Below, piece by piece: positions 17,174 to 58,980 of a stretch of 64,000 nucleotides of DNA. This DNA is from Loxodes magnus (lineage: Eukaryota > Ciliophora > Karyorelictea > Loxodida > Loxodidae): the NCBI GenBank assembly GCA_946699065.1, contig CAMPDV010002017.1, positions 1 to 64,000 on the forward strand. The letters run 5' to 3'. Position 1 is the stretch's first letter. Each line of letters begins with the position of its first letter. The notes below the pieces were generated by a model. That model saw only the letters and a list, made by a program, of their open reading frames with translations, had not been told where the DNA came from and made no database searches. Both the position numbers and the translations under genes were made by a program.

Positions 17174-17254
17174 TGTTCTTTGAAATCTCATCTCTCTCAT
17201 TTTATTACTTTCAATTATGATCTTCAGACTCTTTTACTTGCTTTTCTACTTCAC
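17174..17254 (+). repeat. Reference 81-bp monomer (short form)
   Basis: This is a representative copy of the short form. It begins TGTTCTTTGAAATC and ends TTCTACTTCAC. The CT box reads CATCTCTCTCAT. Being 27 codons long, with one stop-free frame on the + strand, runs of this form give long open frames that repeat a 27-residue peptide. Neighbouring 81-bp copies differ mainly at the second base (TGTTC or TTTTC) and the last bases (CAC, CAT or CAA). Confidence 0.95.
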
Positions 17255-17529
17255 TTTTCTTTGAAATCTCATCTCTCTCATTTTATTACTTTCAATTATG
17301 ATCTTCAGACTCTTTTACTTGCTTTTCTACTTCACTGTTCTTTGAAATCTCATCTCTCTCATTTTATTACTTTCAATTATGATCTTCAGACTCTTTTACT
17401 TTCCTTTCTACTTCACTTTTCTTTGAAATCTCATCTCTCTCATTTTATTACTTTCAATTATGATCTTCAGACTCTTTTACTTGCTTTTCTACTTCACTTT
17501 TCTTTGAAATCTCATCTCTCTCATTTTAT

Positions 17530-20597: not shown

Positions 20598-23500
20598 ATG
20601 TTCTTTGAAATCTCATCTCTTTCTCATTTTATTACTTTCAATTATGATCTTCAGACTCTTTTACTTGCTTTTCTACTTCACTGTTCTTTGAAATCTCATC
20701 TCTTTCTCATTTTATTACTTTCATATATGATCTTCAGACTCTTTTACTTGCTTTTCTACTTCACTGTTCTTATAAATCTCATCTCTCTCATTTTATTACT
20801 TTCAATTATGATCTTTAGACTCTTTTACTTGCTTTTCTACTTCGCTGTTCTTTGAAATCTCATCTCTTTCTCATTTTATTACTTTCAATTATGATCTTCA
20901 GACTCTTTTACTTGCTTTTCTACTTCAATGTTCTTTGAAATCTCATCTCTCTCATTTTATTACTTTCATATATGATCTTCAGATTTCTTTGCTTTTCTAC
21001 TTCACTGTTCTTTGAAATCTCATCTCTTTCTCATTTTATTACTTTCAATTATGATCTTCAGACTCTTTTACTTGCTTTTCTACTTCAATGTTCTTTGAAA
21101 TCTCATCTCTCTCATTTTATTACTTTCATATATGATCTTCAGACTCTTTTACTTTCTTTTCTACTTCACTTTTCTTATAAATCTAATCTCTCTCATTTAT
21201 TACTTTCATATATGATCTTCAGACTCTTTTACTTGCTTTTCTACTTCACTTTTATTTGAAATCTCATCTCTTTCTCATTTTATTACTTTCAATTATGATC
21301 TTCAGACTCTTTTACTTGCTTTTCTACTTCACTGTTCTTTGAAATCTCATCTCTCTCATTTTATTACTTTCAATTATGATCTTTAGACTCTTTTACTTGC
21401 TTTTCTACTTCACTGTTCTTTGAAATCTCATCTCTTTCTCATTTTATTACTTTCAATTATGATCTTCAGACTCTTTTACTTGCTTTTCTACTTCAATGTT
21501 CTTTGAAATCTCATCTCTCTCATTTTATTACTTTCAATTATGATCTTCAGACTCTTTTACTTGCTTTTCTACTTCACTGTTCTTATAAATCTAATCTCTC
21601 TCATTTATTACTTTCATATATGATCTTCAGACTCTTTTACTTGCTTTTCTACTTCACTGTTCTTTGAAATCTCATCTCTTTCTCATTTTATTACTTTCAA
21701 TTATGATCTTTAGACTCTTTTACTTGCTTTTCTACTTCATTGTTCTTTGAAATCTCATCTCTCTCATTTTATTACTTTCAATTATGATCTTCAGACTCTT
21801 TTACTTTCTTTTCTACTTCACTGTTCTTTGAAATCTCATCTCTTTCTCATTTTATTACTTTCAATTATGATCTTCAGACTCTTTTACTTGCTTTTCTACT
21901 TCACTGTTCTTTGAAATCTCATCTCTTTCTCATTTTATTACTTTCAATTATGATCTTCAGACTCTTTTACTTGCTTTTCTACTTCACTGTTCTTTGAAAT
22001 CTCATCTCTCTCTCATTTATTACTTTCATATATGATCTTCAGACTCTTTTACTTTCTTTTCTACTTCACTGTACTTATAATTCTCATCTCTTTCTCATTT
22101 TATTACTTTCAATTATGATCTTCAGACTCTTTTACTTGCTTTTCTACTTCACTTTTCTTATAAATCTAATCTCTCTCATTTATTACTTTCATATATGATC
22201 TTCAGACTCTTTTACTTTCTTTTCTACTTCAAAGTTCTTTGAAATCTCATCTCTTTCTCATTTTATTACTTTCAATTATGATCTTCAGACTCTTTTACTT
22301 GCTTTTCTACTTCACTGTTCTTTGAAATCTCATCTCTCTCATTTTATTACTTTCATATATGATCTTCAGACTCTTTTACTTTCTTTTCTACTTCACTTTT
22401 CTTATAAATCTCATCTCTTTCTCATTTTATTACTTTCAATTATGATCTTCAGACTCTTTTACTTGCTTTTCTACTTCACTTTTCTTATAAATCTAATCTC
22501 TCTCATTTATTACTTTCATATATGATCTTCAGACTCTTTTACTTTCTTTTCTACTTCACTGTTCTTATAAATCTCATCTCTCTCATTTTATTACTTTCAA
22601 TTATGATCTTCAGACTCTTTTACTTTCTTTTCTACTTCACTTTTCTTATAAATCTAATCTCTCTCATTTTATTACTTTCATATATGATCTTCAGATTTAT
22701 ATACTTGCTTTTCTACTTCACTTTTCTTTGAAATCTCATCTCTCTCATTTTATTACTTTCAATTATGATCTTCAGACTCTTTTACTTGCTTTTCTACTTC
22801 ACTTTTCTTATAAATCTAATCTCTTTCTCATTTTATTACTTTCATATATGATCTTCAGACTCTTTTACTTGCTTTTCTACTTCACTTTTCTTTGAAATCT
22901 CATCTCTCTCATTTTATTACTTTCAATTATGATCTTTAGACTCTTTTAGATGCTTTTCTACTTCATTGTTCTTTGAAATCTCATCTCTCTCATTTTATCA
23001 CTTTCAATTATGATCTTCAGACTCTTTTACTTGCTTTTCTACTTCAATGTTCTTTGAAATCTCATCTCTTTCTCATTTTATTACTTTCAATTATGATCTT
23101 CAGACTCTTTTACTTGCTTTTCTACTTCACTGTTCTTTGAAATCTCATCTCTCTCATTTTATTACTTTCAATTATGATCTTCAGACTCTTTTACTTTCTT
23201 TTCTACTTCACTTTTCTTATAAATCTAATCTCTCTCATTTATTACTTTCATATATGATCTTCAGATTTATATACTTGCTTTTCTACTTCACTTTTCTTTG
23301 AAATCTCATCTCTCTCATTTTATTACTTTCAATTATGATCTTCAGACTCTTTTACTTGCTTTTCTACTTCACTTTTCTTATAAATCTAATCTTTCTCATT
23401 TTATTACTTTCAATTATGATCTTCAGACTCTTTTACTTGCTTTTCTACTTCATTGTTCTTTGAAATCTCATCTCTCTCATTTTATTACTTTCAATTATGA

Positions 23501-23782
23501 TCTTCAGACTCTTTTACTTTCTTTTCTACTTCACTTTTCTTATAAATCTCATCTCTTTCTCATTTTATTACTTTCAATTATGATCTTCAGACTCTTTTAC
23601 TTGCTTTTCTACTTCAATGTTCTTATAAATCTCATCTCTTTCTCATTTTATTACTTTCAATTATGATCTTCAGACTCTTTTACTTGCTTTTCTACTTCAA
23701 TGTTCTTTGAAATCTCATCTCTTTCTCATTTTATTACTTTCAATTATGATCTTCAGACTCTTTTACTTGCTTTTCTACTTCA
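20598..23782 (+). repeat. B higher-order repeat, copy 1 (about 3.2 kb)
   Basis: This is the first of three consecutive related blocks. The CpG marker lies at 20,843. Matches to copy 2 run at offset 3,185 (20,598 pairs with 23,783) and then 3,104 (22,322 pairs with 25,426; 22,522 with 25,626). It contains CAGATTTCTTTGC at about 20,984, TTTTATTTGAAATC near 21,250, CTTCAAAGTTC near 22,229 and CAGATTTATATACTTGC near 22,694. A rare CTTTTAGATGC lies near 22,944. Confidence 0.75.
20843..20844. other. CpG dinucleotide in a lineage-marker monomer (1 of 7)
   Basis: The usual CTTCACTG reads CTTCGCTG. The consensus monomer has no CpG, and these seven sites are the only ones I found: 20,843, 24,028, 27,046, 39,508, 40,653, 45,475 and 47,447. 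Each follows a monomer with GATCTTTAGAC, which in turn follows CTGTTCTTATAAATCTC, so all seven descend from one variant. Confidence 0.85.
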
Positions 23783-26700
23783 ATGTTCTTTGAAATCTCA
23801 TCTCTTTCTCATTTTATTACTTTCAATTATGATCTTCAGACTCTTTTACTTGCTTTTCTACTTCACTGTTCTTTGAAATCTCATCTCTTTCTCATTTTAT
23901 TACTTTCAATTATGATCTTCAGACTCTTTTACTTGCTTTTCTACTTCACTGTTCTTATAAATCTCATCTCTCTCATTTTATTACTTTCAATTATGATCTT
24001 TAGACTCTTTTACTTGCTTTTCTACTTCGCTGTTCTTTGAAATCTCATCTCTTTCTCATTTTATTACTTTCAATTATGATCTTCAGACTCTTTTACTTGC
24101 TTTTCTACTTCAATGTTCTTTGAAATCTCATCTCTCTCATTTTATCACTTTCAATTATGATATTCAGACTCTTTTACTTGCTTTTCTACTTCACTGTTCT
24201 TATAAATCTAATCTCTCTCATTTATTACTTTCATATATGATCTTCAGACTCTTTTACTTTCTTTTCTACTTCACTGTACTTATAAATCTAATCTCTCTCA
24301 TTTATTACTTTCATATATGATCTTCAGACTCTTTTACTTGCTTTTCTACTTCACTGTTCTTTGAAATCTCATCTTTCTCATTTTATTACTTTCAATTATG
24401 ATCTTCAGACTCTTTTACTTGCTTTTCTACTTCACTTTTCTTTGAAATCTCATCTCTCTCATTTTATTACTTTCAACTATGATCTTCAGACTCTTTTACT
24501 TGCTTTTCTACTTCACTGTTCTTTGAAATCTCATCTCTCTCATTTTATTACTTTCAATTATGATCTTTAGACTCTTTTACTTGCTTTTCTACTTCACTGT
24601 TCTTTGAAATCTCATCTCTTTCTCATTTTATTACTTTCAATTATGATCTTCAGACTCTTTTACTTGCTTTTCTACTTCAATGTTCTTTGAAATCTCATCT
24701 CTCTCATTTTATCACTTTCAATTATGATATTCAGACTCTTTTACTTGCTTTTCTACTTCACTGTTCTTATAAATCTAATCTCTCTCATTTATTACTTTCA
24801 TATATGATCTTCAGACTCTTTTACTTGCTTTTCTACTTCACTGTTCTTTGAAATCTCATCTCTTTCTCATTTTATTACTTTCAATTATGATCTTTAGACT
24901 CTTTTACTTGCTTTTCTACTTCATTGTTCTTTGAAATCTCATCTCTCTCATTTTATTACTTTCAATTATGATCTTCAGACTCTTTTACTTTCTTTTCTAC
25001 TTCACTGTTCTTTGAAATCTCATCTCTTTCTCATTTTATTACTTTCAATTATGATCTTCAGACTCTTTTACTTGCTTTTCTACTTCACTGTTCTTTGAAA
25101 TCTCATCTCTTTCTCATTTTATTACTTTCAATTATGATCTTCAGACTCTTTTACTTGCTTTTCTACTTCACTGTTCTTTGAAATCTCATCTCTCTCTCAT
25201 TTATTACTTTCATATATGATCTTCAGACTCTTTTACTTTCTTTTCTACTTCACTGTACTTATAAATCTCATCTCTTTCTCATTTTATTACTTTCAATTAT
25301 GATCTTCAGACTCTTTTACTTGCTTTTCTACTTCACTGTTCTTTGAAATCTCATCTCTTTCTCATTTTATTACTTTCAATTATGATCTTCAGACTCTTTT
25401 ACTTGCTTTTCTACTTCACTGTTCTTTGAAATCTCATCTCTCTCATTTTATTACTTTCATATATGATCTTCAGACTCTTTTACTTTCTTTTCTACTTCAC
25501 TTTTCTTATAAATCTCATCTCTTTCTCATTTTATTACTTTCAATTATGATCTTCAGACTCTTTTACTTTCTTTTCTACTTCACTTTTCTTATAAATCTAA
25601 TCTCTCTCATTTATTACTTTCATATATGATCTTCAGACTCTTTTACTTGCTTTTCTACTTCACTGTTCTTATAAATCTCATCTCTCTCATTTTATTACTT
25701 TCAATTATGATCTTCAGACTCTTTTACTTTCTTTTCTACTTCACTTTTCTTATAAATCTAATCTCTCTCATTTTATTACTTTCATATATGATCTTCAGAT
25801 TTATATACTTGCTTTTCTACTTCACTTTTCTTTGAAATCTCATCTCTCTCATTTTATTACTTTCAATTATGATCTTCAGACTCTTTTACTTGCTTTTCTA
25901 CTTCACTTTTCTTATAAATCTAATCTCTCTCATTTTATTACTTTCAATTATGATCTTCAGACTCTTTTACTTGCTTTTCTACTTCACTGTTCTTTGAAAT
26001 CTCATCTCTCTCATTTTATTACTTTCAATTATGATCTTTAGACTCTTTTACTTGCTTTTCTACTTCACTGTTCTTTGAAATCTCATCTCTTTCTCATTTT
26101 ATTACTTTCAATTATGATCTTCAGACTCTTTTACTTGCTTTTCTACTTCAATGTTCTTTGAAATCTCATCTCTCTCATTTTATCACTTTCAATTATGATA
26201 TTCAGACTCTTTTACTTGCTTTTCTACTTCACTGTTCTTATAAATCTAATCTCTCTCATTTATTACTTTCATATATGATCTTCAGACTCTTTTACTTGCT
26301 TTTCTACTTCACTGTTCTTTGAAATCTCATCTCTTTCTCATTTTATTACTTTCAATTATGATCTTTAGACTCTTTTACTTGCTTTTCTACTTCACTGTTC
26401 TTTGAAATCTCATCTCTCTCATTTTATTACTTTCATATATGATCTTCAGACTCTTTTACTTTCTTTTCTACTTCACTGTACTCATAAATCTAATCTCTCT
26501 CATTTATTACTTTCATATATGATCTTCAGATTTCTTTGCTTTTCTACTTCACTGTTCTTTGAAATCTCATCTCTTTCTCATTTTATTACTTTCAATTATG
26601 ATCTTCAGACTCTTTTACTTGCTTTTCTACTTCAATGTTCTTTGAAATCTCATCTCTTTCTCATTTTATTACTTTCATATATGATCTTCAGACTCTTTTA

Positions 26701-26800
26701 CTTGCTTTTCTACTTCACTGTTCTTTGAAATCTCATCTCTTTCTCAATTTATTACTTTCAATTATGATCTTCAGACTCTTTTACTTGCTTTTCTACTTCA
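23783..26800 (+). repeat. B higher-order repeat, copy 2 (about 3.0 kb)
   Basis: This is the second consecutive block. The CpG marker lies at 24,028. It pairs with copy 1 (offset 3,185, then 3,104) and with copy 3 (23,783 pairs with 26,801, offset 3,018). TGATATTCAG occurs at about 24,157, 24,727 and 26,198. The same run is copied again near 47.4-50 kb (25,426 pairs with 48,602, 25,626 with 48,802 and 25,832 with 49,008, all offset 23,176). Confidence 0.75.
24028..24029. other. CpG marker monomer (2 of 7)
   Basis: CTTCGCTG with the same flanking variants as the site at 20,843; offset 3,185 from it. Confidence 0.85.
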
Positions 26801-29590
26801 ATGTTCTTTGAAATCTCATCTCTTTCTCATTTTATTACTTTCAATTATGATCTTCAGACTCTTTTACTTGCTTTTCTACTTCACTGTTCTTTGAAATCTC
26901 ATCTCTTTCTCATTTTATTACTTTCATATATGATCTTCAGACTCTTTTACTTGCTTTTCTACTTCACTGTTCTTATAAATCTCATCTCTCTCATTTTATT
27001 ACTTTCAATTATGATCTTTAGACTCTTTTACTTGCTTTTCTACTTCGCTGTTCTTTGAAATCTCATCTCTTTCTCATTTTATTACTTTCAATTATGATCT
27101 TCAGACTCTTTTACTTGCTTTTCTACTTCACTGTTCTTTGAAATCTCATCTCTCTCATTTTATTACTTTCAATTATGATCTTCAGACTCTTTTACTTGCT
27201 TTTCTACTTCACTGTTCTTTGAAATCTCATCTCTTTCTCATTTTATTACTTTCAATTATGATCTTCAGACTCTTTTACTTGCTTTTTCTACTTCACTGTT
27301 CTTTGAAATCTCATCTCTTTCTCATTTTATTACTTTCAATTATGATCTTCAGACTCTTTTACTTGCTTTTCTACTTCACTGTACTTATAAATCTCATCTC
27401 TTTCTCATTTTATTACTTTCAATTATGATCTTCAGACTCTTTTACTTGCTTTTCTACTTCACTTTTCTTATAAATCTCATCTCTTTCTCATTTTATTACT
27501 TTCATATATGATCTTCAGATTTCTTTGCTTTTCTACTTCACTGTTCTTTGAAATCTCATCTCTTTCTCATTTTATTACTTTCAATTATGATCTTCAGACT
27601 CTTTTACTTGCTTTTCTACTTCAATGTTCTTTGAAATCTCATCTCTCTCATTTTATTACTTTCATATATGATCTTCAGACTCTTTTACTTTCTTTTCTAC
27701 TTCACTTTTCTTATAAATCTAATCTCTCTCATTTATTACTTTCATATATGATCTTCAGACTCTTTTACTTGCTTTTCTACTTCACTTTTATTTGAAATCT
27801 CATCTCTTTCTCATTTTATTACTTTCAATTATGATCTTCAGACTCTTTTACTTGCTTTTCTACTTCACTGTTCTTTGAAATCTCATCTCTCTCATTTTAT
27901 TACTTTCAATTATGATCTTTAGACTCTTTTACTTGCTTTTCTACTTCACTGTTCTTTGAAATCTCATCTCTTTCTCATTTTATTACTTTCAATTATGATC
28001 TTCAGACTCTTTTACTTGCTTTTCTACTTCAATGTTCTTTGAAATCTCATCTCTCTCATTTTATCACTTTCAATTATGATATTCAGACTCTTTTACTTGC
28101 TTTTCTACTTCACTGTTCTTATAAATCTAATCTCTCTCATTTATTACTTTCATATATGATCTTCAGACTCTTTTACTTGCTTTTCTACTTCACTGTTCTT
28201 TGAAATCTCATCTCTTTCTCATTTTATTACTTTCAATTATGATCTTCAGACTCTTTTACTTGCTTTTCTACTTCATTGTTCTTTGAAATCTCATCTCTCT
28301 CATTTTATCACTTTCAATTATGATCTTCAGACTCTTTTACTTTCTTTTCTACTTCACTTTTCTTATAAATCTCATCTCTCTCATTTTATTACTTTCAATT
28401 ATGATCTTCAGACTCTTTTACTTGCTTTTCTACTTCACTGTTCTTTGAAATCTCATCTCTTTCTCATTTTATTACTTTCAATTATGATCTTCAGACTCTT
28501 TTACTTGCTTTTCTACTTCAATGTTCTTTGAAATCTCATCTCTCTCATTTTATTACTTTCATATATGATCTTCAGACTCTTTTACTTTCTTTTCTACTTC
28601 ACTGTACTCATAAATCTAATCTCTCTCATTTATTACTTTCATATATGATCTTCAGACTCTTTTACTTTCTTTTCTACTTCACTGTACTTATAAATCTCAT
28701 CTCTTTCTCATTTTATTACTTTCAATTATGATCTTCAGACTCTTTTACTTGCTTTTCTACTTCACTTTTCTTATAAATCTAATCTCTCTCATTTTATTAC
28801 TTTCAATTATGATCTTCAGACTCTTTTACTTGCTTTTCTACTTCACTGTTCTTTGAAATCTAATCTCTCTCATTTATTACTTTCATATATGATCTTCAGA
28901 CTCTTTTACTTTCTTTTCTACTTCACTTTTCTTATAAATCTCATCTCTTTCTCATTTTATTACTTTCAATTATGATCTTCAGACTCTTTTACTTGCTTTT
29001 CTACTTCACTGTTCTTTGAAATCTCATCTCTCTCATTTTATCACTTTCATATATGATCTTCAGACTCTTTTACTTTCTTTTCTACTTCACTGTACTTATA
29101 AATCTCATCTCTTTCTCATTTTATTACTTTCAATTATGATCTTCAGACTCTTTTACTTGCTTTTCTACTTCACTGTTCTTTGAAATCTCATCTCTTTCTC
29201 ATTTATTACTTTCATATATGATCTTCAGACTCTTTTACTTTCTTTTCTACTTCAAAGTTCTTTGAAATCTCATCTCTTTCTCATTTTATTACTTTCAATT
29301 ATGATCTTCAGACTCTTTTACTTGCTTTTCTACTTCACTGTTCTTTGAAATCTCATCTCTCTCATTTTATTACTTTCATATATGATCTTCAGACTCTTTT
29401 ACTTTCTTTTCTACTTCACTTTTCTTATAAATCTCATCTCTTTCTCATTTTATTACTTTCAATTATGATCTTCAGACTCTTTTACTTTCTTTTACTTCAC
29501 TGTTCTTTGAAATCTCATCTCTTTCTCATTTTATTACTTTCAATTATGATCTTCAGACTCTTTTACTTGCTTTTCTACTTCACTGTTCTT
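26801..29590 (+). repeat. B higher-order repeat, copy 3
   Basis: The CpG marker lies at 27,046. It pairs with copy 1 at offset 6,203 (20,598 with 26,801), 6,536 (20,972 with 27,508) and 7,023 (22,322 with 29,345; CTTCAAAGTTC at 22,229 with 29,252). The changing offsets show monomer gains inside this copy. A shortened monomer lies near 29,490, where TTTCTTTTACTTCAC lacks part of the usual TTTTCTACTTC. Confidence 0.7.
27046..27047. other. CpG marker monomer (3 of 7)
   Basis: CTTCGCTG with the same flanking variants; offset 3,018 from the previous site, giving the period of the B higher-order repeat. Confidence 0.85.
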
Positions 29591-32750: not shown

Positions 32751-32852
32751 ACTCTTTTACTTTGTTCTTTTCTCATCTCTTCATTTTTTCTTTGAAATCT
32801 CAGACTCTTTTACTTTCTTTTCTCTCATTTTATTACTTTCACTTTCAATTAT
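32751..32852 (+). repeat. Scrambled, overlong monomer (about 111 bp between landmarks)
   Basis: This is the most irregular unit I found. The TGATC landmark at 32,741 is followed by the next at 32,852, a step of 111 bp instead of 81-83. Between them, monomer fragments appear out of order: TTGTTCTTTTCTCATC, then TTCATTTTTTCTTTGAAATC, then CAGACTC directly after AAATCT, then CTTTTCTCTCATTTTATTAC. It ends with a short tandem copy, ACTTTCACTTTCAATT. Flanking monomers are normal. It could be a local rearrangement (replication slippage or repair) or a consensus error. Confidence 0.8.
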
Positions 32853-43600: not shown

Positions 43601-45264
43601 AATCTCATCTCTCTCATTTTATCACTTTCAATTATGATCTTCAGACTCTTTTACTTGCTTTTCTACTTCAATGTTCTTTGAAATCTCATCTCTTTCTCAT
43701 TTTATTACTTTCAATTATGATCTTCAGACTCTTTTACTTGCTTTTCTACTTCACTGTTCTTTGAAATCTCATCTCTCTCATTTTATTACTTTCAATTATG
43801 ATCTTCAGACTCTTTTACTTTCTTTTCTACTTCACTTTTCTTATAAATCTAATCTCTCTCATTTTATTACTTTCATATATGATCTTCAGATTTATATACT
43901 TGCTTTTCTACTTCACTTTTCTTTGAAATCTCATCTCTCTCATTTTATTACTTTCAATTATGATCTTCAGACTCTTTTACTTGCTTTTCTACTTCACTTT
44001 TCTTATAAATCTAATCTCTCTCATTTTATTACTTTCAATTATGATCTTCAGACTCTTTTACTTGCTTTTCTACTTCACTTTTCTTTGAAATCTCATCTCT
44101 CTCATTTTATTACTTTCAATTATGATCTTTAGACTCTTTTACTTGCTTTTCTACTTCACTGTTCTTTGAAATCTCATCTCTTTCTCATTTTATTACTTTC
44201 AATTATGATCTTCAGACTCTTTTACTTGCTTTTCTACTTCAATGTTCTTTGAAATCTCATCTCTCTCATTTTATCACTTTCAATTATGATATTCAGACTC
44301 TTTTACTTGCTTTTCTACTTCACTGTTCTTATAAATCTAATCTCTCTCATTTATTACTTTCATATATGATCTTCAGACTCTTTTACTTGCTTTTCTACTT
44401 CACTGTTCTTTGAAATCTCATCTCTTTCTCATTTTATTACTTTCAATTATGATCTTTAGACTCTTTTACTTGCTTTTCTACTTCACTGTTCTTTGAAATC
44501 TCATCTCTTTCTCATTTTATTACTTTCAATTATGATCTTCAGACTCTTTTACTTGCTTTTCTACTTCACTTTTCTTATAAATCTAATCTCTCTCATTTTA
44601 TTACTTTCAATTATGATCTTCAGACTCTTTTACTTGCTTTTCTACTTCACTGTTCTTTGAAATCTCATCTCTCTCATTTTATTACTTTCAATTATGATCT
44701 TTAGACTCTTTTACTTGCTTTTCTACTTCAATGTTCTTTGAAATCTCATCTCTCTCATTTTATCACTTTCAATTATGATCTTCAGACTCTTTTACTTGCT
44801 TTTCTACTTCACTGTTCTTTGAAATCTCATCTCTTTCTCATTTTATTACTTTCAATTATGATCTTCAGACTCTTTTACTTGCTTTTCTACTTCACTGTTC
44901 TTTGAAATCTCATCTCTTTCTCATTTTATTACTTTCAATTATGATCTTCAGACTCTTTTACTTGCTTTTCTACTTCACTTTTCTTATAAATCTCATCTCT
45001 TTCTCATTTTATTACTTTCAATTATGATCTTCAGACTCTTTTACTTGCTTTTCTACTTCACTTTTCTTATAAATCTCATCTCTTTCTCATTTTATTACTT
45101 TCAATTATGATCTTCAGACTCTTTTACTTGCTTTTCTACTTCAATGTTCTTTGAAATCTCATCTCTTTCTCATTTTATTACTTTCAATTATGATCTTCAG
45201 ACTCTTTTACTTGCTTTTCTACTTCAATGTTCTTTGAAATCTCATCTCTTTCTCATTTTATTAC

Positions 45265-46372
45265 TTTCAATATATGATCTTCAGACTCTTTTACTTGCTT
45301 TTCTACTTCACTGTTCTTTGAAATCTCATCTCTTTCTCATTTTATTACTTTCATATATGATCTTCAGACTCTTTTACTTGCTTTTCTACTTCACTGTTCT
45401 TATAAATCTCATCTCTTTCTCATTTTATTACTTTCAATTATGATCTTTAGACTCTTTTACTTGCTTTTCTACTTCGCTGTTCTTTGAAATCTCATCTCTT
45501 TCTCATTTTATTACTTTCAATTATGATCTTCAGACTCTTTTACTTGCTTTTCTACTTCAATGTTCTTATGAAATCTCATCTCTTTCTCATTTTATTACTT
45601 TCATATTATGATCTTCAGACTTTCTTTGCTTTTCTACTTCACTGTTCTTTGAAATCTCATCTCTTTCTCATTTTATTACTTTCAATTATGATCTTCAGAC
45701 TCTTTTACTTGCTTTTCTACTTCAATGTTCTTTGAAATCTCATCTCTTTCTCATTTTATTACTTTCATATATGATCTTCAGACTCTTTTACTTTCTTTTC
45801 TACTTCACTTTTCTTATAAATCTAATCTCTTTCTCATTTATTACTTTCATATATGATCTTCAGACTCTTTTACTTGCTTTTCTACTTCACTTTTATTATG
45901 AAATCTCATCTCTTTCTCATTTTATTACTTTCAATTATGATCTTCAGACTCTTTTACTTGCTTTTCTACTTCACTGTTCTTTGAAATCTCATCTCTTTCT
46001 CATTTTATTACTTTCAATTATGATCTTTAGACTCTTTTACTTGCTTTTCTACTTCACTGTTCTTTGAAATCTCATCTCTTTCTCATTTTATTACTTTCAA
46101 TATATGATCTTCAGACTCTTTTACTTGCTTTTCTACTTCAATGTTCTTTGAAATCTCATCTCTTTCTCATTTTATTACTTTCAATTATGATCTTCAGACT
46201 CTTTTACTTGCTTTTCTACTTCACTGTTCTTATAAATCTCATCTCTCTCATTTTATTACTTTCAATATATGATCTTCAGACTCTTTTACTTTCTTTTCTA
46301 CTTCACTTTTCTTATAAATCTAATCTCTCTCATTTTATTACTTTCATATATGATCTTCAGACTTTATATACT
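45265..46372 (+). repeat. Patch of composite monomer alleles, first block
   Basis: Monomers here carry alleles that look like two common alleles merged with one added base. CAATATATG lies at about 45,268, 46,098 and 46,264. CATATTATG lies at 45,602. CTTATGAAATC lies near 45,566, with TTATTATGAAATC near 45,893. CAGACTTTCTTTGC lies near 45,617 and CAGACTTTATATAC near 46,359. In the matching copy near 20.85-21.3 kb and 22.7 kb the same sites read TTTGAAATC, CATATATG, CAGATTTCTTTGC and CAGATTTATATAC. Confidence 0.8.
45475..45476. other. CpG marker monomer (6 of 7)
   Basis: CTTCGCTG at the start of the second long B copy. The preceding monomer here has the 83-bp CT box where the other six have the 81-bp box, in line with the altered alleles of this patch. 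Confidence 0.85.
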
Positions 46373-47446
46373 TGCTTTTCTACTTCACTTTTCTTTGAAA
46401 TCTCATCTCTCTCATTTTATTACTTTCAATTATGATCTTCAGACTCTTTTACTTGCTTTTCTACTTCACTTTTCTTATAAATCTAATCTCTTTCTCATTT
46501 TATTACTTTCATATATGATCTTCAGACTCTTTTACTTGCTTTTCTACTTCACTTTTCTTTGAAATCTCATCTCTCTCATTTTATTACTTTCAATTATGAT
46601 CTTTAGACTCTTTTAGATGCTTTTCTACTTCATTGTTCTTTGAAATCTCATCTCTCTCATTTTATCACTTTCAATTATGATCTTCAGACTCTTTTACTTG
46701 CTTTTCTACTTCAATGTTCTTTGAAATCTCATCTCTTTCTCATTTTATTACTTTCAATTATGATCTTCAGACTCTTTTACTTGCTTTTCTACTTCACTGT
46801 TCTTTGAAATCTCATCTCTCTCATTTTATTACTTTCAATTATGATCTTCAGACTCTTTTACTTTCTTTTCTACTTCACTTTTCTTATAAATCTAATCTCT
46901 CTCATTTTATTACTTTCATATATGATCTTCAGATTTATATACTTGCTTTTCTACTTCACTTTTCTTTGAAATCTCATCTCTCTCATTTTATTACTTTCAA
47001 TTATGATCTTCAGACTCTTTTACTTGCTTTTCTACTTCACTTTTCTTATAAATCTAATCTTTCTCATTTTATTACTTTCAATTATGATCTTCAGACTCTT
47101 TTACTTGCTTTTCTACTTCATTGTTCTTTGAAATCTCATCTCTCTCATTTTATTACTTTCAATTATGATCTTCAGACTCTTTTACTTTCTTTTCTACTTC
47201 ACTTTTCTTATAAATCTCATCTCTTTCTCATTTTATTACTTTCAATTATGATCTTCAGACTCTTTTACTTGCTTTTCTACTTCAATGTTCTTATAAATCT
47301 CATCTCTTTCTCATTTTATTACTTTCAATTATGATCTTCAGACTCTTTTACTTGCTTTTCTACTTCACTGTTCTTATAAATCTCATCTCTCTCATTTTAT
47401 TACTTTCAATTATGATCTTTAGACTCTTTTACTTGCTTTTCTACTT

Positions 47447-47448
47447 CG
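47447..47448. other. CpG marker monomer (7 of 7)
   Basis: CTTCGCTG with the same flanks; pairs with 24,028 at offset 23,419. Confidence 0.85.
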
Positions 47449-49654
47449 CTGTTCTTTGAAATCTCATCTCTTTCTCATTTTATTACTTTCAATTATGATC
47501 TTCAGACTCTTTTACTTGCTTTTCTACTTCAATGTTCTTTGAAATCTCATCTCTCTCATTTTATCACTTTCAATTATGATATTCAGACTCTTTTACTTGC
47601 TTTTCTACTTCACTGTTCTTATAAATCTAATCTCTCTCATTTATTACTTTCATATATGATCTTCAGACTCTTTTACTTTCTTTTCTACTTCACTGTACTT
47701 ATAAATCTAATCTCTCTCATTTATTACTTTCAATTATGATCTTTAGACTCTTTTACTTGCTTTTCTACTTCACTGTTCTTTGAAATCTCATCTCTTTCTC
47801 ATTTTATTACTTTCAATTATGATCTTCAGACTCTTTTACTTGCTTTTCTACTTCAATGTTCTTTGAAATCTCATCTCTCTCATTTTATCACTTTCAATTA
47901 TGATATTCAGACTCTTTTACTTGCTTTTCTACTTCACTGTTCTTATAAATCTAATCTCTCTCATTTATTACTTTCATATATGATCTTCAGACTCTTTTAC
48001 TTGCTTTTCTACTTCACTGTTCTTTGAAATCTCATCTCTTTCTCATTTTATTACTTTCAATTATGATCTTTAGACTCTTTTACTTGCTTTTCTACTTCAT
48101 TGTTCTTTGAAATCTCATCTCTCTCATTTTATTACTTTCAATTATGATCTTCAGACTCTTTTACTTTCTTTTCTACTTCACTGTTCTTTGAAATCTCATC
48201 TCTTTCTCATTTTATTACTTTCAATTATGATCTTCAGACTCTTTTACTTGCTTTTCTACTTCACTGTTCTTTGAAATCTCATCTCTTTCTCATTTTATTA
48301 CTTTTAATTATGATCTTCAGACTCTTTTACTTGCTTTTCTACTTCACTGTTCTTTGAAATCTCATCTCTCTCTCATTTATTACTTTCATATATGATCTTC
48401 AGACTCTTTTACTTTCTTTTCTACTTCACTGTACTTATAAATCTCATCTCTTTCTCATTTTATTACTTTCAATTATGATCTTCAGACTCTTTTACTTGCT
48501 TTTCTACTTCACTGTTCTTTGAAATCTCATCTCTTTCTCATTTTATTACTTTCAATTATGATCTTCAGACTCTTTTACTTGCTTTTCTACTTCACTGTTC
48601 TTTGAAATCTCATCTCTCTCATTTTATTACTTTCATATATGATCTTCAGACTCTTTTACTTTCTTTTCTACTTCACTTTTCTTATAAATCTCATCTCTTT
48701 CTCATTTTATTACTTTCAATTATGATCTTCAGACTCTTTTACTTTCTTTTCTACTTCACTTTTCTTATAAATCTAATCTCTCTCATTTATTACTTTCATA
48801 TATGATCTTCAGACTCTTTTACTTGCTTTTCTACTTCACTGTTCTTATAAATCTCATCTCTCTCATTTTATTACTTTCAATTATGATCTTCAGACTCTTT
48901 TACTTTCTTTTCTACTTCACTTTTCTTATAAATCTAATCTCTCTCATTTTATTACTTTCATATATGATCTTCAGATTTATATACTTGCTTTTCTACTTCA
49001 CTTTTCTTTGAAATCTCATCTCTCTCATTTTATTACTTTCAATTATGATCTTCAGACTCTTTTACTTGCTTTTCTACTTCACTTTTCTTATAAATCTAAT
49101 CTCTCTCATTTTATTACTTTCAATTATGATCTTCAGACTCTTTTACTTGCTTTTCTACTTCACTGTTCTTTGAAATCTCATCTCTCTCATTTTATTACTT
49201 TCAATTATGATCTTTAGACTCTTTTACTTGCTTTTCTACTTCACTGTTCTTTGAAATCTCATCTCTTTCTCATTTTATTACTTTCAATTATGATCTTCAG
49301 ACTCTTTTACTTGCTTTTCTACTTCAATGTTCTTTGAAATCTCATCTCTCTCATTTTATCACTTTCAATTATGATATTCAGACTCTTTTACTTGCTTTTC
49401 TACTTCACTGTTCTTATAAATCTAATCTCTCTCATTTATTACTTTCATATATGATCTTCAGACTCTTTTACTTGCTTTTCTACTTCACTGTTCTTTGAAA
49501 TCTCATCTCTTTCTCATTTTATTACTTTCAATTATGATCTTTAGACTCTTTTACTTGCTTTTCTACTTCATTGTTCTTTGAAATCTCATCTCTCTCATTT
49601 TATTACTTTCATATATGATCTTCAGACTCTTTTACTTTCTTTTCTACTTCACTG

Positions 49655-52600
49655 TACTCATGAAATCTCATCTCTCTCATTTATTACTTTCATATATGAT
49701 CTTCAGACTTTTTACTTGCTTTTCTACTTCACTGTTCTTTGAAATCTCATCTCTTTCTCATTTTATTACTTTCAATTATGATCTTCAGACTCTTTTACTT
49801 GCTTTTCTACTTCAATGTTCTTTGAAATCTCATCTCTTTCTCATTTTATTACTTTCATATATGATCTTCAGACTCTTTTACTTGCTTTTCTACTTCACTG
49901 TTCTTTGAAATCTCATCTCTTTCTCAATTTATTACTTTCAATTATGATCTTCAGACTCTTTTACTTGCTTTTCTACTTCAATGTTCTTTGAAATCTCATC
50001 TCTTTCTCATTTTATTACTTTCAATTATGATCTTCAGACTCTTTTACTTGCTTTTCTACTTCAATGTTCTTTGAAATCTCATCTCTTTCTCATTTTATTA
50101 CTTTCATATATGATCTTCAGACTCTTTTACTTGCTTTTCTACTTCACTGTTCTTATAAATCTAATCTCTCTCATTTTATTACTTTCAATTATGATCTTCA
50201 GACTCTTTTACTTGCTTTTCTACTTCACTGTTCTTTGAAATCTCATCTCTTTCTCATTTTATTACTTTCAATTATGATCTTTAGACTCTTTTACTTGCTT
50301 TTCTACTTCATTGTTCTTTGAAATCTCATCTCTTTCTCATTTTATTACTTTCAATTATGATCTTCAGACTCTTTTACTTGCTTTTCTACTTCACTGTTCT
50401 TTGAAATCTCATCTCTTTCTCATTTTATTACTTTCAATTATGATCTTCAGACTCTTTTACTTGCTTTTTCTACTTCACTGTTCTTTGAAATCTCATCTCT
50501 TTCTCATTTTATTACTTTCAATTATGATCTTCAGACTCTTTTACTTGCTTTTCTACTTCACTGTTCTTATGAAATCTCATCTCTTTCTCATTTTATTACT
50601 TTCAATTATGATCTTCAGACTCTTTTACTTGCTTTTCTACTTCACTTTTCTTATAAATCTCATCTCTTTCTCATTTTATTACTTTCATATATGATCTTCA
50701 GACTTTTTACTTGCTTTTCTACTTCACTGTTCTTTGAAATCTCATCTCTTTCTCATTTTATTACTTTCATATTATGATCTTCAGACTCTCTTACTTGCTT
50801 TTCTACTTCAATGTTCTTTGAAATCTCATCTCTCTCATTTTATTACTTTCATATATGATCTTCAGACTCTTTTACTTGCTTTTCTACTTCACTTTTCTTA
50901 TAAATCTCATCTCTTTCTCATTTATTACTTTCAATATATGATCTTCAGACTCTTTTACTTGCTTTTCTACTTCACTTTTCTTATGAAATCTCATCTCTTT
51001 CTCATTTTATTACTTTCAATTATGATCTTCAGACTCTTTTACTTGCTTTTCTACTTCACTGTTCTTTGAAATCTCATCTCTCTCATTTTATTACTTTCAT
51101 ATTATGATCTTCAGACTCTCTTACACACTATTCTACTTCACTGTTCTTTGAAATCTCATCTCTTTCTCATTTTATTACTTTCAATTATGATCTTCAGACT
51201 CTTTTACTTGCTTTTCTACTTCAATGTTCTTTGAAATCTCATCTCTTTCTCATTTTATTACTTTCAATTATGATCTTCAGACTCTTTTACTTGCTTTTCT
51301 ACTTCACTGTTCTTATAAATCTAATCTCTCTCATTTATTACTTTCATATATGATCTTCAGACTCTTTTACTTGCTTTTCTACTTCACTGTTCTTTGAAAT
51401 CTCATCTCTTTCTCATTTTATTACTTTCAATTATGATCTTTAGACTCTTTTACTTGCTTTTCTACTTCATTGTTCTTTGAAATCTCATCTCTCTCATTTT
51501 ATCACTTTCAATTATGATCTTCAGACTCTTTTACTTTCTTTTCTACTTCACTTTTCTTATAAATCTCATCTCTCTCATTTTATTACTTTCAATTATGATC
51601 TTCAGACTCTTTTACTTGCTTTTCTACTTCACTGTTCTTTGAAATCTCATCTCTTTCTCATTTTATTACTTTCAATTATGATCTTCAGACTCTTTTACTT
51701 GCTTTTCTACTTCAATGTTCTTTGAAATCTCATCTCTCTCATTTTATTACTTTCAATATATGATCTTCAGACTCTTTTACTTGCTTTTCTACTTCACTGT
51801 ACTCATAAATCTCATCTCTCTCATTTATTACTTTCATATATGATCTTCAGACTCTTTTACTTGCTTTTCTACTTCACTGTACTTATAAATCTCATCTCTT
51901 TCTCATTTTATTACTTTCAATTATGATCTTCAGACTCTTTTACTTGCTTTTCTACTTCACTGTTCTTATAAATCTCATCTCTCTCATTTATTACTTTCAT
52001 ATATGATCTTCAGACTCTCTTACACACTATTCTACTTCACTTTTCTTTGAAATCTCATCTCTTTCTCATTTTATTACTTTCAATTATGATCTTCAGACTC
52101 TTTTACTTGCTTTTCTACTTCAATGTTCTTTGAAATCTCATCTCTTTCTCATTTTATTACTTTCAATTATGATCTTCAGACTCTTTTACTTGCTTTTCTA
52201 CTTCATTGTTCTTTGAAATCTCATCTCTTTCTCATTTTATTACTTTCAATTATGATCTTCAGACTCTTTTACTTGCTTTTCTACTTCATTGTTCTTTGAA
52301 ATCTCATCTCTCTCATTTATTACTTTCAATATATGATCTTCAGACTCTTTTACTTGCTTTTCTACTTCAATGTTCTTATAAATCTCATCTCTTTCTCATT
52401 TTATTACTTTCAATTATGATCTTCAGACTCTTTTACTTGCTTTTCTACTTCACTGTTCTTTGAAATCTCATCTCTTTCTCATTTTATTACTTTCATATAT
52501 GATCTTCAGACTCTTTTACTTTCTATTCTACTTCACTGTACTTATAAATCTCATCTCTTTCTCATTTTATTACTTTCAATTATGATCTTCAGACTCTTTT

Positions 52601-54080
52601 ACTTGCTTTTCTACTTCAATGTACTTATAAATCTCATCTCTTTCTCATTTTATTACTTTCAATTATGATCTTCAGACTCTTTTACTTGCTTTTCTACTTC
52701 ATTGTACTTATAAATCTCATCTCTTTCTCATTTTATTACTTTCAATATATGATCTTCAGACTCTTTTACTTGCTTTTCTACTTCAATTTTCTTTGAAATC
52801 TCATCTCTTTCTCATTTTATTACTTTCAATTATGATCTTCAGACTCTTTTACTTGCTTTTCTACTTCACTGTTCTTATAAATCTCATCTCTTTCTCATTT
52901 TATTACTTTCATATTATGATCTTCAGACTCTTTTACTTGCTTTTCTACTTCACTGTTCTTTGAAATCTCATCTCTCTCATTTTATTACTTTCAATTATGA
53001 TCTTTAGACTCTTTTACTTGCTTTTCTACTTCACTGTTCTTTGAAATCTCATCTCTTTCTCATTCTATTACTTTCAATTATGATCTTCAGACTCTTTTAC
53101 TTGCTTTTCTACTTCATTGTTCTTTGAAATCTCATCTCTCTCATTTTATTACTTTCAATATATGATCTTCAGACTCTTTTACTTGCTTTTCTACTTCACT
53201 GTACTTATAAATCTCATCTCTCTCATTTTATCACTTTCAATATATGATCTTCAGACTCTTTTACTTGCTTTTCTACTTCACTGTTCTTATAAATCTCATC
53301 TCTTTCTCATTTTATTACTTTCAATTATGATCTTCAGACTCTTTTACTTGCTTTTCTACTTCACTGTTCTTATGAAATCTCATCTCTCTCATTTATTACT
53401 TTCAATATATGATCTTCAGACTCTTTTACTTGCTTTTCTACTTCACTTTTCTTTGAAATCTCATCTCTTTCTCATTTTATTACTTTCAATTATGATCTTT
53501 AGACTCTTTTACTTGCTTTTCTACTTCACTGTTCTTTGAAATCTCATCTCTTTCTCATTTTATTACTTTCAATTATGATCTTCAGACTCTTTTACTTTCT
53601 TTTCTACTTCACTGTTCTTATGAAATCTAATCTCTTTCTCATTTTATTACTTTCAATTATGATCTTCAGACTCTTTTACTTGCTTTTCTACTTCACTGTA
53701 CTTATGAAATCTAATCTCTCTCATTTATTACTTTCAATATATGATCTTTAGACTCTTTTACTTGCTTTTCTACTTCATTGTTCTTTGAAATCTCATCTCT
53801 TTCTCATTTTATTACTTTCAATTATGATCTTCAGACTCTTTTACTTGCTTTTCTACTTCACTGTTCTTTGAAATCTCATCTCTTTCTCATTTATTACTTT
53901 CAATATATGATCTTCAGACTCTTTTACTTTCTTTTCTACTTCAAAGTTCTTTGAAATCTCATCTCTCTCTCATTTATTACTTTCAATATATGATCTTCAG
54001 ACTCTTTTACTTGCTTTTCTACTTCAATGTTCTTTGAAATCTCATCTCTTTCTCATTTTATTACTTTCATATTATGATCT
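49655..54080 (+). repeat. Patch of composite monomer alleles, second block
   Basis: Composite alleles recur here. CAATATATG occurs at ten sites between about 50,932 and 53,985. CATATTATG occurs near 50,768, 51,098, 52,910 and 54,068. ATGAAATC follows CTC or CTT near 49,659, 50,567, 50,980, 53,369, 53,618 and 53,703. CAGACTTTTTACTTGC occurs near 49,704 and 50,699. The stretch 46,400-49,650 between the two patches shows none and matches its partner copy cleanly. The patch ends where the A2 copy begins. Confidence 0.8.
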
Positions 54081-54084
54081 TCAG

Positions 54085-57000
54085 ACTCTCTTACACACTA
54101 TTCTACTTCACTGTTCTTTGAAATCTCATCTCTCTCATTTTATTACTTTCAATTATGATCTTCAGACTCTTTTACTTGCTTTTCTACTTCAATGTTCTTT
54201 GAAATCTCATCTCTTTCTCATTTTATTACTTTCAATTATGATCTTCAGACTCTTTTACTTGCTTTTCTACTTCATTGTTCTTTGAAATCTCATCTTTCTC
54301 ATTTTATTACTTTCAATTATGATCTTCAGACTCTTTTACTTGCTTTTCTACTTCATTGTTCTTTGAAATCTCATCTCTCTCATTTTATTACTTTCAATTA
54401 TGATCTTCAGACTCTTTTACTTGCTTTTCTACTTCAATGTTCTTTGAAATCTCATCTCTTTCTCATTTTATTACTTTCAATTATGATCTTCAGACTCTTT
54501 TACTTGCTTTTCTACTTCACTGTTCTTTGAAATCTCATCTCTCTCATTTTATTACTTCATATATGATCTTCAGACTCTCTTACACACTATTCTACTTCAC
54601 TTTTCTTTGAAATCTCATCTCTCTCATTTTATTACTTTCAATTATGATCTTCAGACTCTTTTACTTGCTTTTCTACTTCAATGTTCTTTGAAATCTCATC
54701 TCTTTCTCATTTTATTACTTTCAATTATGATCTTCAGACTCTTTTACTTGCTTTTCTACTTCATTGTTCTTTGAAATCTCATCTCTCTCATTTTATCACT
54801 TTCAATTATGATCTTCAGACTCTTTTACTTGCTTTTCTACTTCAATGTTCTTTGAAATCTCATCTCTTTCTCATTTTATTACTTTCAATTATGATCTTCA
54901 GACTCTTTTACTTGCTTTTCTACTTCACTTTTCTTATAAATCTAATCTCTCTCATTTATAACTTTCATATATGATCTTCAGACTCTTTTACTTGCTTTTC
55001 TACTTCACTTTTCTTTGAAATCTCATCTCTCTCATTTTATTACTTTCAATTATGATCTTTAGACTCTTTTACTTGCTTTTCTACTTCATTGTTCTTTGAA
55101 ATCTCATCTCTTTCTCATTCTATTACTTTCAATTATGATCTTCAGACTCTTTTACTTGCTTTTCTACTTCATTGTTCTTTGAAATCTCATCTTTCTCATT
55201 TTATTACTTTCAATTATGATCTTCAGACTCTTTTACTTGCTTTTCTACTTCACTTTTCTTTGAAATCTCATCTCTCTCATTTTATTACTTTCAATTATGA
55301 TCTTCAGACTCTTTTACTTGCTTTTCTACTTCACTGTTCTTTGAAATCTCATCTCTTTCTCATTTTATTACTTTCAATTATGATCTTCAGACTCTTTTAC
55401 TTTCTTTTCTACTTCACTTTTCTTATAAATCTAATCTCTCTCATTTATTACTTTCAATTATGATCTTCAGACTCTTTTACTTGCTTTTCTACTTCACTGT
55501 TCTTTGAAATCTCATCTCTCTCATTTTATTACTTTCAATTATGATCTTTAGACTCTTTTACTTGCTTTTCTACTTCATTGTTCTTTGAAATCTCATCTCT
55601 TTCTCATTTTATTACTTTCAATTATGATCTTCAGACTCTTTTACTTGCTTTTCTACTTCACTGTTTTTTGAAATCTCATCTCTCTCATTTTATTACTTTC
55701 AATTATGATCTTCAGACTCTTTTACTTTCCTTTCTACTTCACTTTTCTTTGAAATCTCATCTCTCTCATTTTATTACTTTCAATTATGATCTTCAGACTC
55801 TTTTACTTGCTTTTCTACTTCACTTTTCTTTGAAATCTCATCTCTCTCATTTTATTACTTTCAATTATGATCTTCAGACTCTTTTACTTGCTTTTCTACT
55901 TCACTGTTCTTTGAAATCTCATCTCTCTCATTTTATTACTTTCAATTATGATCTTCAGACTCTTTTACTTGCTTTTCTACTTCATTGTTCTTTGAAATCT
56001 CATCTCTCTCATTTTATTACTTTCAATTATGATCTTCAGACTCTTTTACTTGCTTTTCTACTTCAATGTTCTTTGAAATCTCATCTCTTTCTCATTTTAT
56101 TACTTTCAATTATGATCTTCAGACTCTTTTACTTGCTTTTCTACTTCAATGTTCTTTGAAATCTCATCTCTTTCTCATTTTATTACTTTCAATTATGATC
56201 TTCAGACTCTTTTACTTGCTTTTCTACTTCATTGTTCTTTGAAATCTCATCTCTCTCATTTTATTACTTTCAATTATGATCTTCAGACTCTTTTACTTGC
56301 TTTTCTACTTCACTTTTCTTTGAAATCTCATCTCTCTCATTTTATTACTTTCAATTATGATCTTCAGACTCTTTTACTTGCTTTTCTACTTCACTGTTCT
56401 TTGAAATCTCATCTCTCTCATTTTATTACTTTCAATTATGATCTTCAGACTCTTTTACTTGCTTTTCTACTTCACTTTTCTTTGAAATCTCATCTCTCTC
56501 ATTTTATTACTTTCAATTATGATCTTCAGACTCTTTTACTTGCTTTTCTACTTCACTGTTCTTTGAAATCTCATCTCTCTCATTTTATTACTTTCAATTA
56601 TGATCTTCAGACTCTTTTACTTTCCTTTCTACTTCACTTTTCTTTGAAATCTCATCTCTCTCATTTTATTACTTTCAATTATGATCTTCAGACTCTTTTA
56701 CTTGCTTTTCTACTTCACTTTTCTTTGAAATCTCATCTCTCTCATTTTATTACTTTCAATTATGATCTTCAGACTCTTTTACTTGCTTTTCTACTTCACT
56801 GTTCTTTGAAATCTCATCTCTCTCATTTTATTACTTCATATATGATCTTCAGACTCTCTTACACACTATTCTACTTCACTTTTCTTTGAAATCTCATCTC
56901 TACTTTCAATTATGATCTTCAGACTCTTTTACACACTATTCTACTTCACTTTTCTTTGAAATCTCATCTCTCTCCTTTTATTACTTTCAATTATGATCTT

Positions 57001-58980
57001 CAGACTCTTTTACTTGCTTTTCTACTTCAATGTTCTTTGAAATCTCATCTCTTTCTCATTTTATTACTTTCAATTATGATCTTCAGACTCTTTTACTTGC
57101 TTTTCTACTTCATTGTTCTTTGAAATCTCATCTTTCTCATTTTATTACTTTCAATTATGATCTTCAGACTCTTTTACTTGCTTTTCTACTTCATTGTTCT
57201 TTGAAATCTCATCTCTCTCATTTTATTACTTTCAATTATGATCTTCAGACTCTTTTACTTGCTTTTCTACTTCACTGTTCTTTGAAATCTCATCTCTCTC
57301 ATTTTATTACTTTCAATTATGATCTTTAGACTCTTTTACTTGCTTTTCTACTTCACTGTTCTTTGAAATCTCATCTCTTTCTCATTTTATTACTTTCAAT
57401 TATGATCTTCAGACTCTTTTACTTGCTTTTCTACTTCACTGTTCTTTGAAATCTCATCTCTCTCATTTTATTACTTTCAATTATGATCTTCAGACTCTTT
57501 TACTTTCTTTTCTACTTCACTGTTCTTTGAAATCTCATCTCTCTCATTTTATTACTTTCAATTATGATCTTCAGACTCTTTTACTTGCTTTTCTACTTCA
57601 CTTTTCTTTGAAATCTCATCTCTTTCTCATTTTATTACTTTCAATTATGATCTTCAGACTCTTTTACTTGCTTTTCTACTTCATTGTTCTTTGAAATCTC
57701 ATCTCTTTCTCATTTTATTACTTTCAATTATGATCTTCAGACTCTTTTACTTGCTTTTCTACTTCATTGTTCTTTGAAATCTCATCTCTTTCTCATTTTA
57801 TTACTTTCAATTATGATCTTCAGACTCTTTTACTTGCTTTTCTACTTCACTTTTCTTTGAAATCTAATCTCTCTCATTTATTACTTTCATATATGATCTT
57901 CAGACTCTTTTACTTGCTTTTCTACTTCACTTTTCTTTGAAATCTCATCTCTCTCATTTTATTACTTTCAATTATGATCTTCAGACTCTTTTACTTTCTT
58001 TTCTACTTCACTTTTCTTATAAATCTAATCTCTCTCATTTTATTACTTTCAATTATGATCTTCAGACTCTTTTACTTGCTTTTCTACTTCACTGTTCTTT
58101 GAAATCTCATCTCTTTCTCATTCTATTACTTTCAATTATGATCTTCAGACTCTTTTACTTTCTTTTCTACTTCACTTTTCTTATAAATCTAATCTCTCTC
58201 ATTTTATTACTTTCAATTATGATCTTCAGACTCTTTTACTTGCTTTTCTACTTCACTTTTCTTTGAAATCTCATCTCTCTCATTTTATTACTTTCAATTA
58301 TGATCTTCAGACTCTTTTACTTGCTTTTCTACTTCACTGTTCTTTGAAATCTCATCTCTTTCTCATTTTATTACTTTCAATTATGATCTTCAGACTCTTT
58401 TACTTGCTTTTCTACTTCACTGTTCTTTGAAATCTCATCTCTCTCATTTTATTACTTTCAATTATGATCTTCAGACTCTTTTACTTGCTTTTCTACTTCA
58501 CTGTTCTTTGAAATCTCATCTCTTTCTCATTTTATTACTTTCAATTATGATCTTCAGACTCTTTTACTTTCTTTCTACTTCACTTTTCTTATAAATCTAA
58601 TCTCTCTCATTTATTACTTTCAATTATGATCTTCAGACTCTTTTACTTGCTTTTCTACTTCACTGTTCTTTGAAATCTCATCTCTCTCATTTTATTACTT
58701 TCAATTATGATCTTTTAGACTCTTTTACTTGCTTTTCTACTTCATTGTTCTTTGAAATCTCATCTCTTTCTCATTTTATTACTTTCAATTATGATCTTCA
58801 GACTCTTTTACTTGCTTTTCTACTTCACTGTTCTTTGAAATCTCATCTCTTTCTCATTTTATTACTTTCAATTATGATCTTCAGACTCTTTTACTTTCCT
58901 TTCTACTTCACTGTTCTTTGAAATCTCATCTCTCTCATTTTATTACTTTCAATTATGATCTTCAGACTCTTTTACTTGCT
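54085..58980 (+). repeat. Distant copy of the 14.86-20.5 kb block
   Basis: See the matching block for offsets. Differences I noticed are small: single-base changes in T-runs (near 58,570 and 58,693), a T missing relative to 17,079 that keeps a longer frame open here, and one 70-bp unit near 56,900. The match fades on the right near 58,980, where one copy continues CTACTTCAATG and the other CTACTTCACTT. Confidence 0.85.
56896..56966 (+). repeat. Shortened monomer (about 70 bp) at a block junction
   Basis: The CT box and following T-run are missing: CATCTCTACTTTCAATTATG replaces the usual form, a loss of about 11 bp. The unit also carries the TTACACACTATTC variant. It sits exactly where the match to A1 changes offset by 745 bp, so it probably marks the exchange point. 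Confidence 0.7.

What the first reader, a model, noticed from the sequence alone, without database searches (positions are those of the whole stretch)
45265..54080. Composite 'merged' alleles confined to two patches
At about 30 sites, two common alternative alleles appear fused with one added base or a mixed form. TTTGAAATC plus TTATAAATC gives TTATGAAATC. CAATTATG plus CATATATG gives CAATATATG or CATATTATG. CAGACTCTTTTAC plus CAGATTTCTTTGC gives CAGACTTTCTTTGC. CAGATTTATATAC gives CAGACTTTATATAC. They occur only at 45,265-46,372 and 49,655-54,080; the 3.2 kb between is clean. Different sites in the monomer show the same merging logic, which is what a consensus built from mis-stacked repeat copies or two haplotypes would give. 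A biological alternative is local mosaic repair or conversion that left new alleles, then spread. Either way these patches should be treated apart from the rest.
Basis: partly seen in the sequence, partly recalled or inferred. Interest (0 to 1): 0.72.

Follow-up and report, generated by a model that had tools for sequence, protein, structure and literature searches.

The report
Blended satellite consensus, an assembly artefact
The odd 'fused' repeat variants are most likely not real DNA but places where an assembly program averaged two different copies of the same satellite repeat into one sequence, so this stretch should not be trusted.

Summary
The window is one 81/83-bp satellite array. The +1 'composite' alleles lie only at 45.27-46.37 and 49.66-54.08 kb. 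The 25 composites at the two main sites are exact shortest common supersequences of two common equal-length alleles.

Patch 2 at 49,534-51,840 blends Q (26.36-28.7 kb) with P (10.45-12.7 kb). All 145 slots where P=Q are unchanged; of 87 where they differ, 55 follow Q, 21 P, 9 carry both and 2 are mosaic. No other of 2,205 runs fits as well. P's extra bases were added at 11 of 29 sites; Q's were removed at 0 of 32. In patch 1, 45,107-45,853 equals 20,478-21,212 plus nine insertions.

The clean middle is Q-type alone; the right flank is P alone. The patches are best read as two overlaps of one ~9-kb piece joined to its neighbours and averaged. Base-scale alternation and insertion-only change argue against gene conversion. 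No raw reads were available; beyond ~51.9 kb the second parent was not found.

The parts
45107..46371 (+). Patch 1: blended overlap (first composite 45,268, last about 46,371)
   Evidence: 45,107-45,853 = 20,478-21,212 in 71 of 80 slots, the other 9 being insertions; 45,937-46,187 unexplained
46372..49533 (+). Clean middle: one source only, near-copy of 22.7-26.36 kb
   Evidence: two single-base differences and two 3-unit gaps; exact piece of 1,265 bp; all slots that separate P from Q follow Q in the last five units, 49,126-49,451
49534..54085 (+). Patch 2: blended overlap; parents P and Q shown for 49,534-51,840; P plus an unfound second parent after that
54114..58574 (+). Right flank: P-type alone, copy of 14.9-20.1 kb
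   Evidence: exact over 2,154, 601 and 1,646 bp (matched on C1098, same locus as C2017 14.9-20.1 kb), with a 1-base and a 9-unit offset between pieces
10446..12728 (+). Parent P of patch 2 (register continues to 14.86 kb)
   Evidence: with Q fixed leaves 2 unexplained slots; next distinct run 6; mean 15.5, sd 2.4, n 2,205
26358..28727 (+). Parent Q of patch 2
   Evidence: with P fixed leaves 2 unexplained slots; next run 24; mean 39.4, sd 3.8, n 2,205
20478..21294 (+). Backbone source of the left part of patch 1
   Evidence: 0 non-insertion differences; next of 2,279 runs 10; mean 25.0, sd 4.7
22684..26357 (+). Source of the clean middle

Best explanation
The patches are consensus artefacts at two false overlaps. 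A bridging piece of about 9 kb (45.1-54.1 kb), which tracks 20.5-28.7 kb of the same contig with some unit deletions, was joined on the left to another part of the array and on the right to P-type sequence, through overlaps of about 1.2 and 4.5 kb. In each overlap reads of different repeat copies were stacked and averaged column by column. Where two equal-length alleles align as one insertion plus one deletion, the consensus took the added base and did not drop the other, which gives the +1 fused allele. Between the overlaps one source contributed, so the middle is clean. Shown: the blend at 49.5-51.9 kb and 45.1-45.9 kb, bases added but not removed, and single-source middle and right flank. 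Inferred: that stacked reads and a path-weight (POA or DAG type) consensus did it, and that the joins are false. That the patches are a blend of repeat copies I hold at about 0.93; the number below is for the false-overlap geometry.
For: 145 of 145 slots with P=Q are unchanged and 85 of 87 with P!=Q carry P, Q or both. Q was a member of the listed best pairs in seven successive windows of an unguided pair search, 49,207 to 51,187, and P was its partner in the top pairs at 49,861 and 50,855. Unique best parents. 27 of 29 units are exactly Q with a subset of P's edits, against 14-20 when P is shifted by 1-12 units; added bases 11 of 29, removed bases 0 of 32, Fisher 8e-5. Patch 1 differs from 20,478-21,212 by nine insertions only, and the match starts sharply at 45,107. 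Both possible shortest supersequences of one pair and the only one of the other are the forms seen. Right flank and middle are single-source copies. Unit choices alternate as in shuffled labels, 29 switches of 75 against 30.4 +/- 3.4. Single-copy units: 32 of 70 in patches, 62 of 999 outside. Array contigs here have unresolved joins: C1098 and C2017 agree over 16.5 kb but for one base, then part, and C1098 carries a composite and three scrambled units just beyond.
Against: No reads were seen. P fits only 149 of 208 slots at 52.0-54.1 kb and the other parent there was not found in the held contigs. 45,937-46,187 and the overlay parent of patch 1 are unexplained. Neighbouring sites under 15 bp apart switch less than the rest (4 of 18), and P's share does not rise from left to right across 49.5-52 kb as a simple overlap might give. 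Two composite-bearing units recur on another contig: 50,938 on C5069 and 49,696 on C1971. The bridging piece has its own unit deletions against Q, so a real unassembled copy may lie behind it.
Confidence: 0.72

Rival explanations
1. The 45.1-58.6 kb segment is a real further copy (or the other haplotype) of this part of the array, and only its letters are wrong: reads of P and Q were drawn onto it during correction or polishing and blended with it.
For: The piece differs from Q by gaps of whole units (two of 3 units in the clean middle; a jump of about 12 units in patch 1), and the P copy by a 9-unit gap, which polishing alone would not make. Exact copies over 1 kb occur elsewhere in these arrays.
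Against: P enters sharply at 49,534 and is the sole sequence right of 54.1 kb; the middle shows only Q-type sequence. That is simpler as two joins.
Confidence: 0.18
2. Hybrid molecules: library DNA whose two strands came from different repeat copies (re-annealed amplicons, or recombination intermediates) was read as one consensus that merged both strands.
For: A two-strand consensus would mix two parents about equally at every differing site.
Against: Blends have different parents in the two patches and single-source sequence between and beside them. Recalled mechanism; no call tests it.
Confidence: 0.05
3. Real recombination: unequal exchange joined Q-type to P-type DNA, and repair of the heteroduplex left a mosaic tract with new alleles that keep both bases.
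For: Order Q, mixed, P is what an exchange junction looks like.
Against: Parent choice changes within single units (29 of 75 neighbouring sites), whereas repair tracts are far longer (recalled). Removed bases 0 of 32 against added 11 of 29. Parent alleles are of equal length, so simple mispairs would give same-length mosaics, of which the contig has none of the four sought.
Confidence: 0.03
4. The composites are ordinary inherited alleles of the satellite.
For: The same forms occur on other contigs, and two composite-bearing units recur.
Against: At the A site 24 composites against 23,790 normal-length sites, in few places. Other variants have spread: CATTTATG 6 times over 30 kb of C1971, TTTTAAATC 23 times in 20 kb of C243, TTAGAAATC 34 times on C5969.
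Confidence: 0.01

Closest known systems
Misplaced reads lowering consensus quality in large tandem repeats (human X chromosome, PMC7484160; passages seen)
   Same: Ambiguous read placement in repeats made polishing worse until reads were anchored by unique 21-mers.
   Different: There the unit of damage is allele coverage; here specific +1 supersequence alleles with traceable parents.
False overlaps between repeat copies and voting between overlapping reads (HiCanu, PMC7545148; passages seen)
   Same: HiCanu filters false overlaps aggressively and corrects reads by votes of overlapping reads; a blend is what a false overlap plus voting would leave.
   Different: The assembler and data type used here are not known.

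Membership tests
Consensus artefact from mis-stacked repeat copies | Blended sequence explained by two clean copies held elsewhere | tested here: met
   49,534-51,840: 230 of 232 slots; 45,107-45,853 up to insertions. Not met so far for 51.9-54.1 kb and 45.9-46.2 kb.
Consensus artefact from mis-stacked repeat copies | Parent chosen site by site, not in long tracts | tested here: met
   29 switches of 75 against 30.4 +/- 3.4 shuffled; 4 of 18 at under 15 bp
Consensus artefact from mis-stacked repeat copies | Composites absent from single raw reads; depth abnormal | not testable with these tools
   no reads held
Gene conversion or heteroduplex repair tract | Runs of one parent of repair-tract length and same-length mosaic alleles | tested here: not met
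   30 runs over 2.3 kb, longest 399 bp; CAAATATG, CATTTATG, TTAGAAATC and TTTTAAATC 0 in C2017
Inherited satellite allele | Spread by duplication of units | tested here: not met
   39 of 43 composite-bearing units single-copy in the stretches compared; two pairs recur

The most novel reading that the evidence does not exclude
Exchange between out-of-register satellite copies in this organism is repaired by a process that fills in the extra bases of both strands at mismatched sites and does not remove any, so that recombination junctions create new, longer alleles.
Probability: 0.02. Interest if true: 0.85.

Novelty: not a real feature. Interest (0 to 1): 0.15.

Why it matters
It warns that about 45.1-58.6 kb of this contig should not be used for work on satellite evolution or copy number, and that C5069 and C7779, which carry the same forms, need the same check. 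It also offers a reference-free sign of blended joins in satellite arrays: longer alleles that are shortest common supersequences of two common ones. If the biological reading were true it would be an unknown, insertion-only kind of repair.

Tried and rejected
1. Parents of C5069's composites: a pair search in 8-unit windows gave no full fit (best 64 of 65, others lower). Some units there do not parse, and the parents are probably not held.

2. Second parent right of 51.6 kb: the best runs with P fixed left 0 to 6 slots unexplained but in no consistent register.

3. Patch 1 with Q fixed at 21.5-22.7 kb fitted poorly and was replaced by 20,478-21,212.

4. A whole-unit DNA search of the genome found nothing because common words are skipped; exact patterns were used instead. 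Rfam gave 0 matches.

5. The first alignment of C2017 with C1098 began in the wrong register; it was redone in a band.

6. The composites at the CAGA site are partial merges, not full supersequences, and so is ACTCATGAAATC against the parents tried. A unit with CAGACTTTTTAC also occurs on C1971, so those count for less.

7. Paper searches: among the titles and abstract beginnings listed, none named fused supersequence alleles. That is no proof that none is in print.

Limits of the counts. One search was given parent ranges that I chose, and its path uses one P unit twice (51,595). One search covers 29 of the 66 units; clean flanks and all right of 51,900 were left out, the latter because Q no longer fits (only P's 149 of 208 is reported). 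Two of its nine 'both' slots have CATAT as P's allele. One search uses 25 units. One search's edit counts come from the 27 units that fit, and its shift control counts units with more than 14 edits as misses. One search compares C2017, C5069 (33.9 kb), 30 kb of C1971 and C1098 without the part shared with C2017.

Full report
What the region is. The window is the first 64,000 bases of contig C2017 (87,496 bp) of an unnamed 705.7-Mb assembly in 7,843 contigs. It is one satellite array from end to end, with units of mostly 81 or 83 bp. Genome size suggests a eukaryote; that is inference.

Check of the observation. The parents at the two main sites are of equal length: CAATTATG/CATATATG and TTTGAAATC/TTATAAATC; a composite is one base longer. 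CAATTATG and CATATATG have exactly two shortest common supersequences, and both are seen (13 and 5 times). TTTGAAATC and TTATAAATC have one, and it is seen 7 times. The five other composites (four at the CAGA site, one ACTCATGAAATC) are partial merges. Four equal-length mosaics of the same alleles (CAAATATG, CATTTATG, TTAGAAATC, TTTTAAATC) do not occur in the contig, although three of them are common on other arrays of the genome. Genome-wide, 24 A-site composites stand against 23,790 normal-length sites.

The parents. A pair search over unit runs, given no positions, named Q in its best pairs in seven successive windows (49,207 to 51,187), with P as partner in the top pairs at 49,861 and 50,855. 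A two-parent alignment within ranges chosen from these leads then covered the patch. For 49,534-51,840, which is 29 units and 232 variable slots, the patch agrees with both parents in all 145 slots where they agree. In the other 87 it has Q's allele 55 times, P's 21 times, both 9 times and a mixture twice. With P fixed, Q leaves 2 slots unexplained and the next of 2,205 runs 24; with Q fixed, P leaves 2 and the next distinct run 6 (the tie with C1098 is the same locus). At base level 27 of 29 units are exactly Q with some of P's edits, against 14 to 20 with P shifted by one to twelve units.

The rule of the blend. In the 27 fitting units, P's extra bases were added at 11 of 29 sites, Q's were removed at 0 of 32, and substitutions were taken at 25 of 68. 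Patch 1 obeys the same rule: 45,107-45,853 equals 20,478-21,212 in 71 of 80 slots and the other nine are insertions; the next best of 2,279 runs has ten non-insertion differences. The parental choice changes from site to site as often as in shuffled labels (29 of 75; 30.4 +/- 3.4), though less among sites under 15 bp apart (4 of 18). This is how a column-wise consensus over a mixed stack would behave if longer paths gain weight (inference), and not how conversion tracts do.

Geometry. Left of 45,107 the contig does not follow the neighbourhood of 20.4 kb. From 46,372 to 49,533 it is Q-type alone, with two single-base differences and two 3-unit gaps against 22.7-26.36 kb. P's alleles first appear in the unit at 49,534. 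From 54,114 to 58,574 it is P's continuation alone, exact over 2,154, 601 and 1,646 bp. The two patches are thus best read as the end overlaps of one piece of about 9 kb, and the clean middle as the part with one source. That the joins are false is inferred; a real copy or the other haplotype, blended in its letters, is the main rival. P and Q differ in 87 of 232 slots over 2.3 kb, so an overlap of low identity must have been accepted.

Context. C1098 (reverse) and C2017 from 3,881 to 20,400 agree but for one base, then part; just beyond, C1098 carries one composite and three scrambled units. Single-copy units make up 32 of 70 in the patches and 62 of 999 elsewhere on the contig.

Results against. 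At 52.0-54.1 kb P fits 149 of 208 slots and no second parent in register was found in the held contigs. In patch 1, 45,937-46,187 and the overlay parent are unexplained. Four of 43 composite-bearing units, in two pairs, occur twice: 50,938 with C5069 and 49,696 with C1971. P's share shows no left-to-right trend in 49.5-52 kb. The composites of C5069 were not resolved into parents, and those of C7779 were not studied. No reads could be examined.

Literature. In PMC7484160 (passages) ambiguous read placement lowered quality in the largest X-chromosome repeats. PMC7545148 (passages) describes false-overlap filtering and voting in HiCanu. These make the cause ordinary.

Verdict. An assembly artefact whose mechanism is traced for about half of its length, with a useful diagnostic signature.

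Noticed in passing
window 3,881-20,400 and contig C1098:1-16,584 (reverse): Two contigs share 16.5 kb with one 1-base difference and part abruptly at window 3,880, so the array is held twice in the assembly; C1098 has a composite (16,887) and three scrambled units (about 17,956, 18,287, 18,546) just past the branch.
   Followed up: partly
window 32,740-32,850: A scrambled 111-bp unit made of pieces of the repeat out of order, like those on C1098.
   Followed up: no
window 56,841-57,052: A truncated unit (CATCTCTACTTTCAAT) at the 9-unit gap between this copy and 14.9-20.1 kb; possibly another faulty join.
   Followed up: no
C1971 (30 kb), C243 (20 kb), C5969: Array-specific alleles: CATTTATG 6 times on C1971, TTTTAAATC 23 times on C243, TTAGAAATC 34 times on C5969, all absent from C2017.
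   Followed up: no
C1971:18,822 and 18,870 (reverse): A single composite CAATATATG within 50 bp of a double-loss form CTTTAAATC, the reverse of the merging logic.
   Followed up: no
C7779:4,034, 8,996 and 25,397: Three more TTATGAAATC composites on a contig not fetched.
   Followed up: no
C5505 and C5958 (L033-L035): COX1 (PF00115) on an inverted pair in each of two small contigs; 623-aa frame from GTG with a stretch between the two family matches; the frame before it looks like ND5 (recalled) with in-frame stops under table 11.
   Followed up: partly
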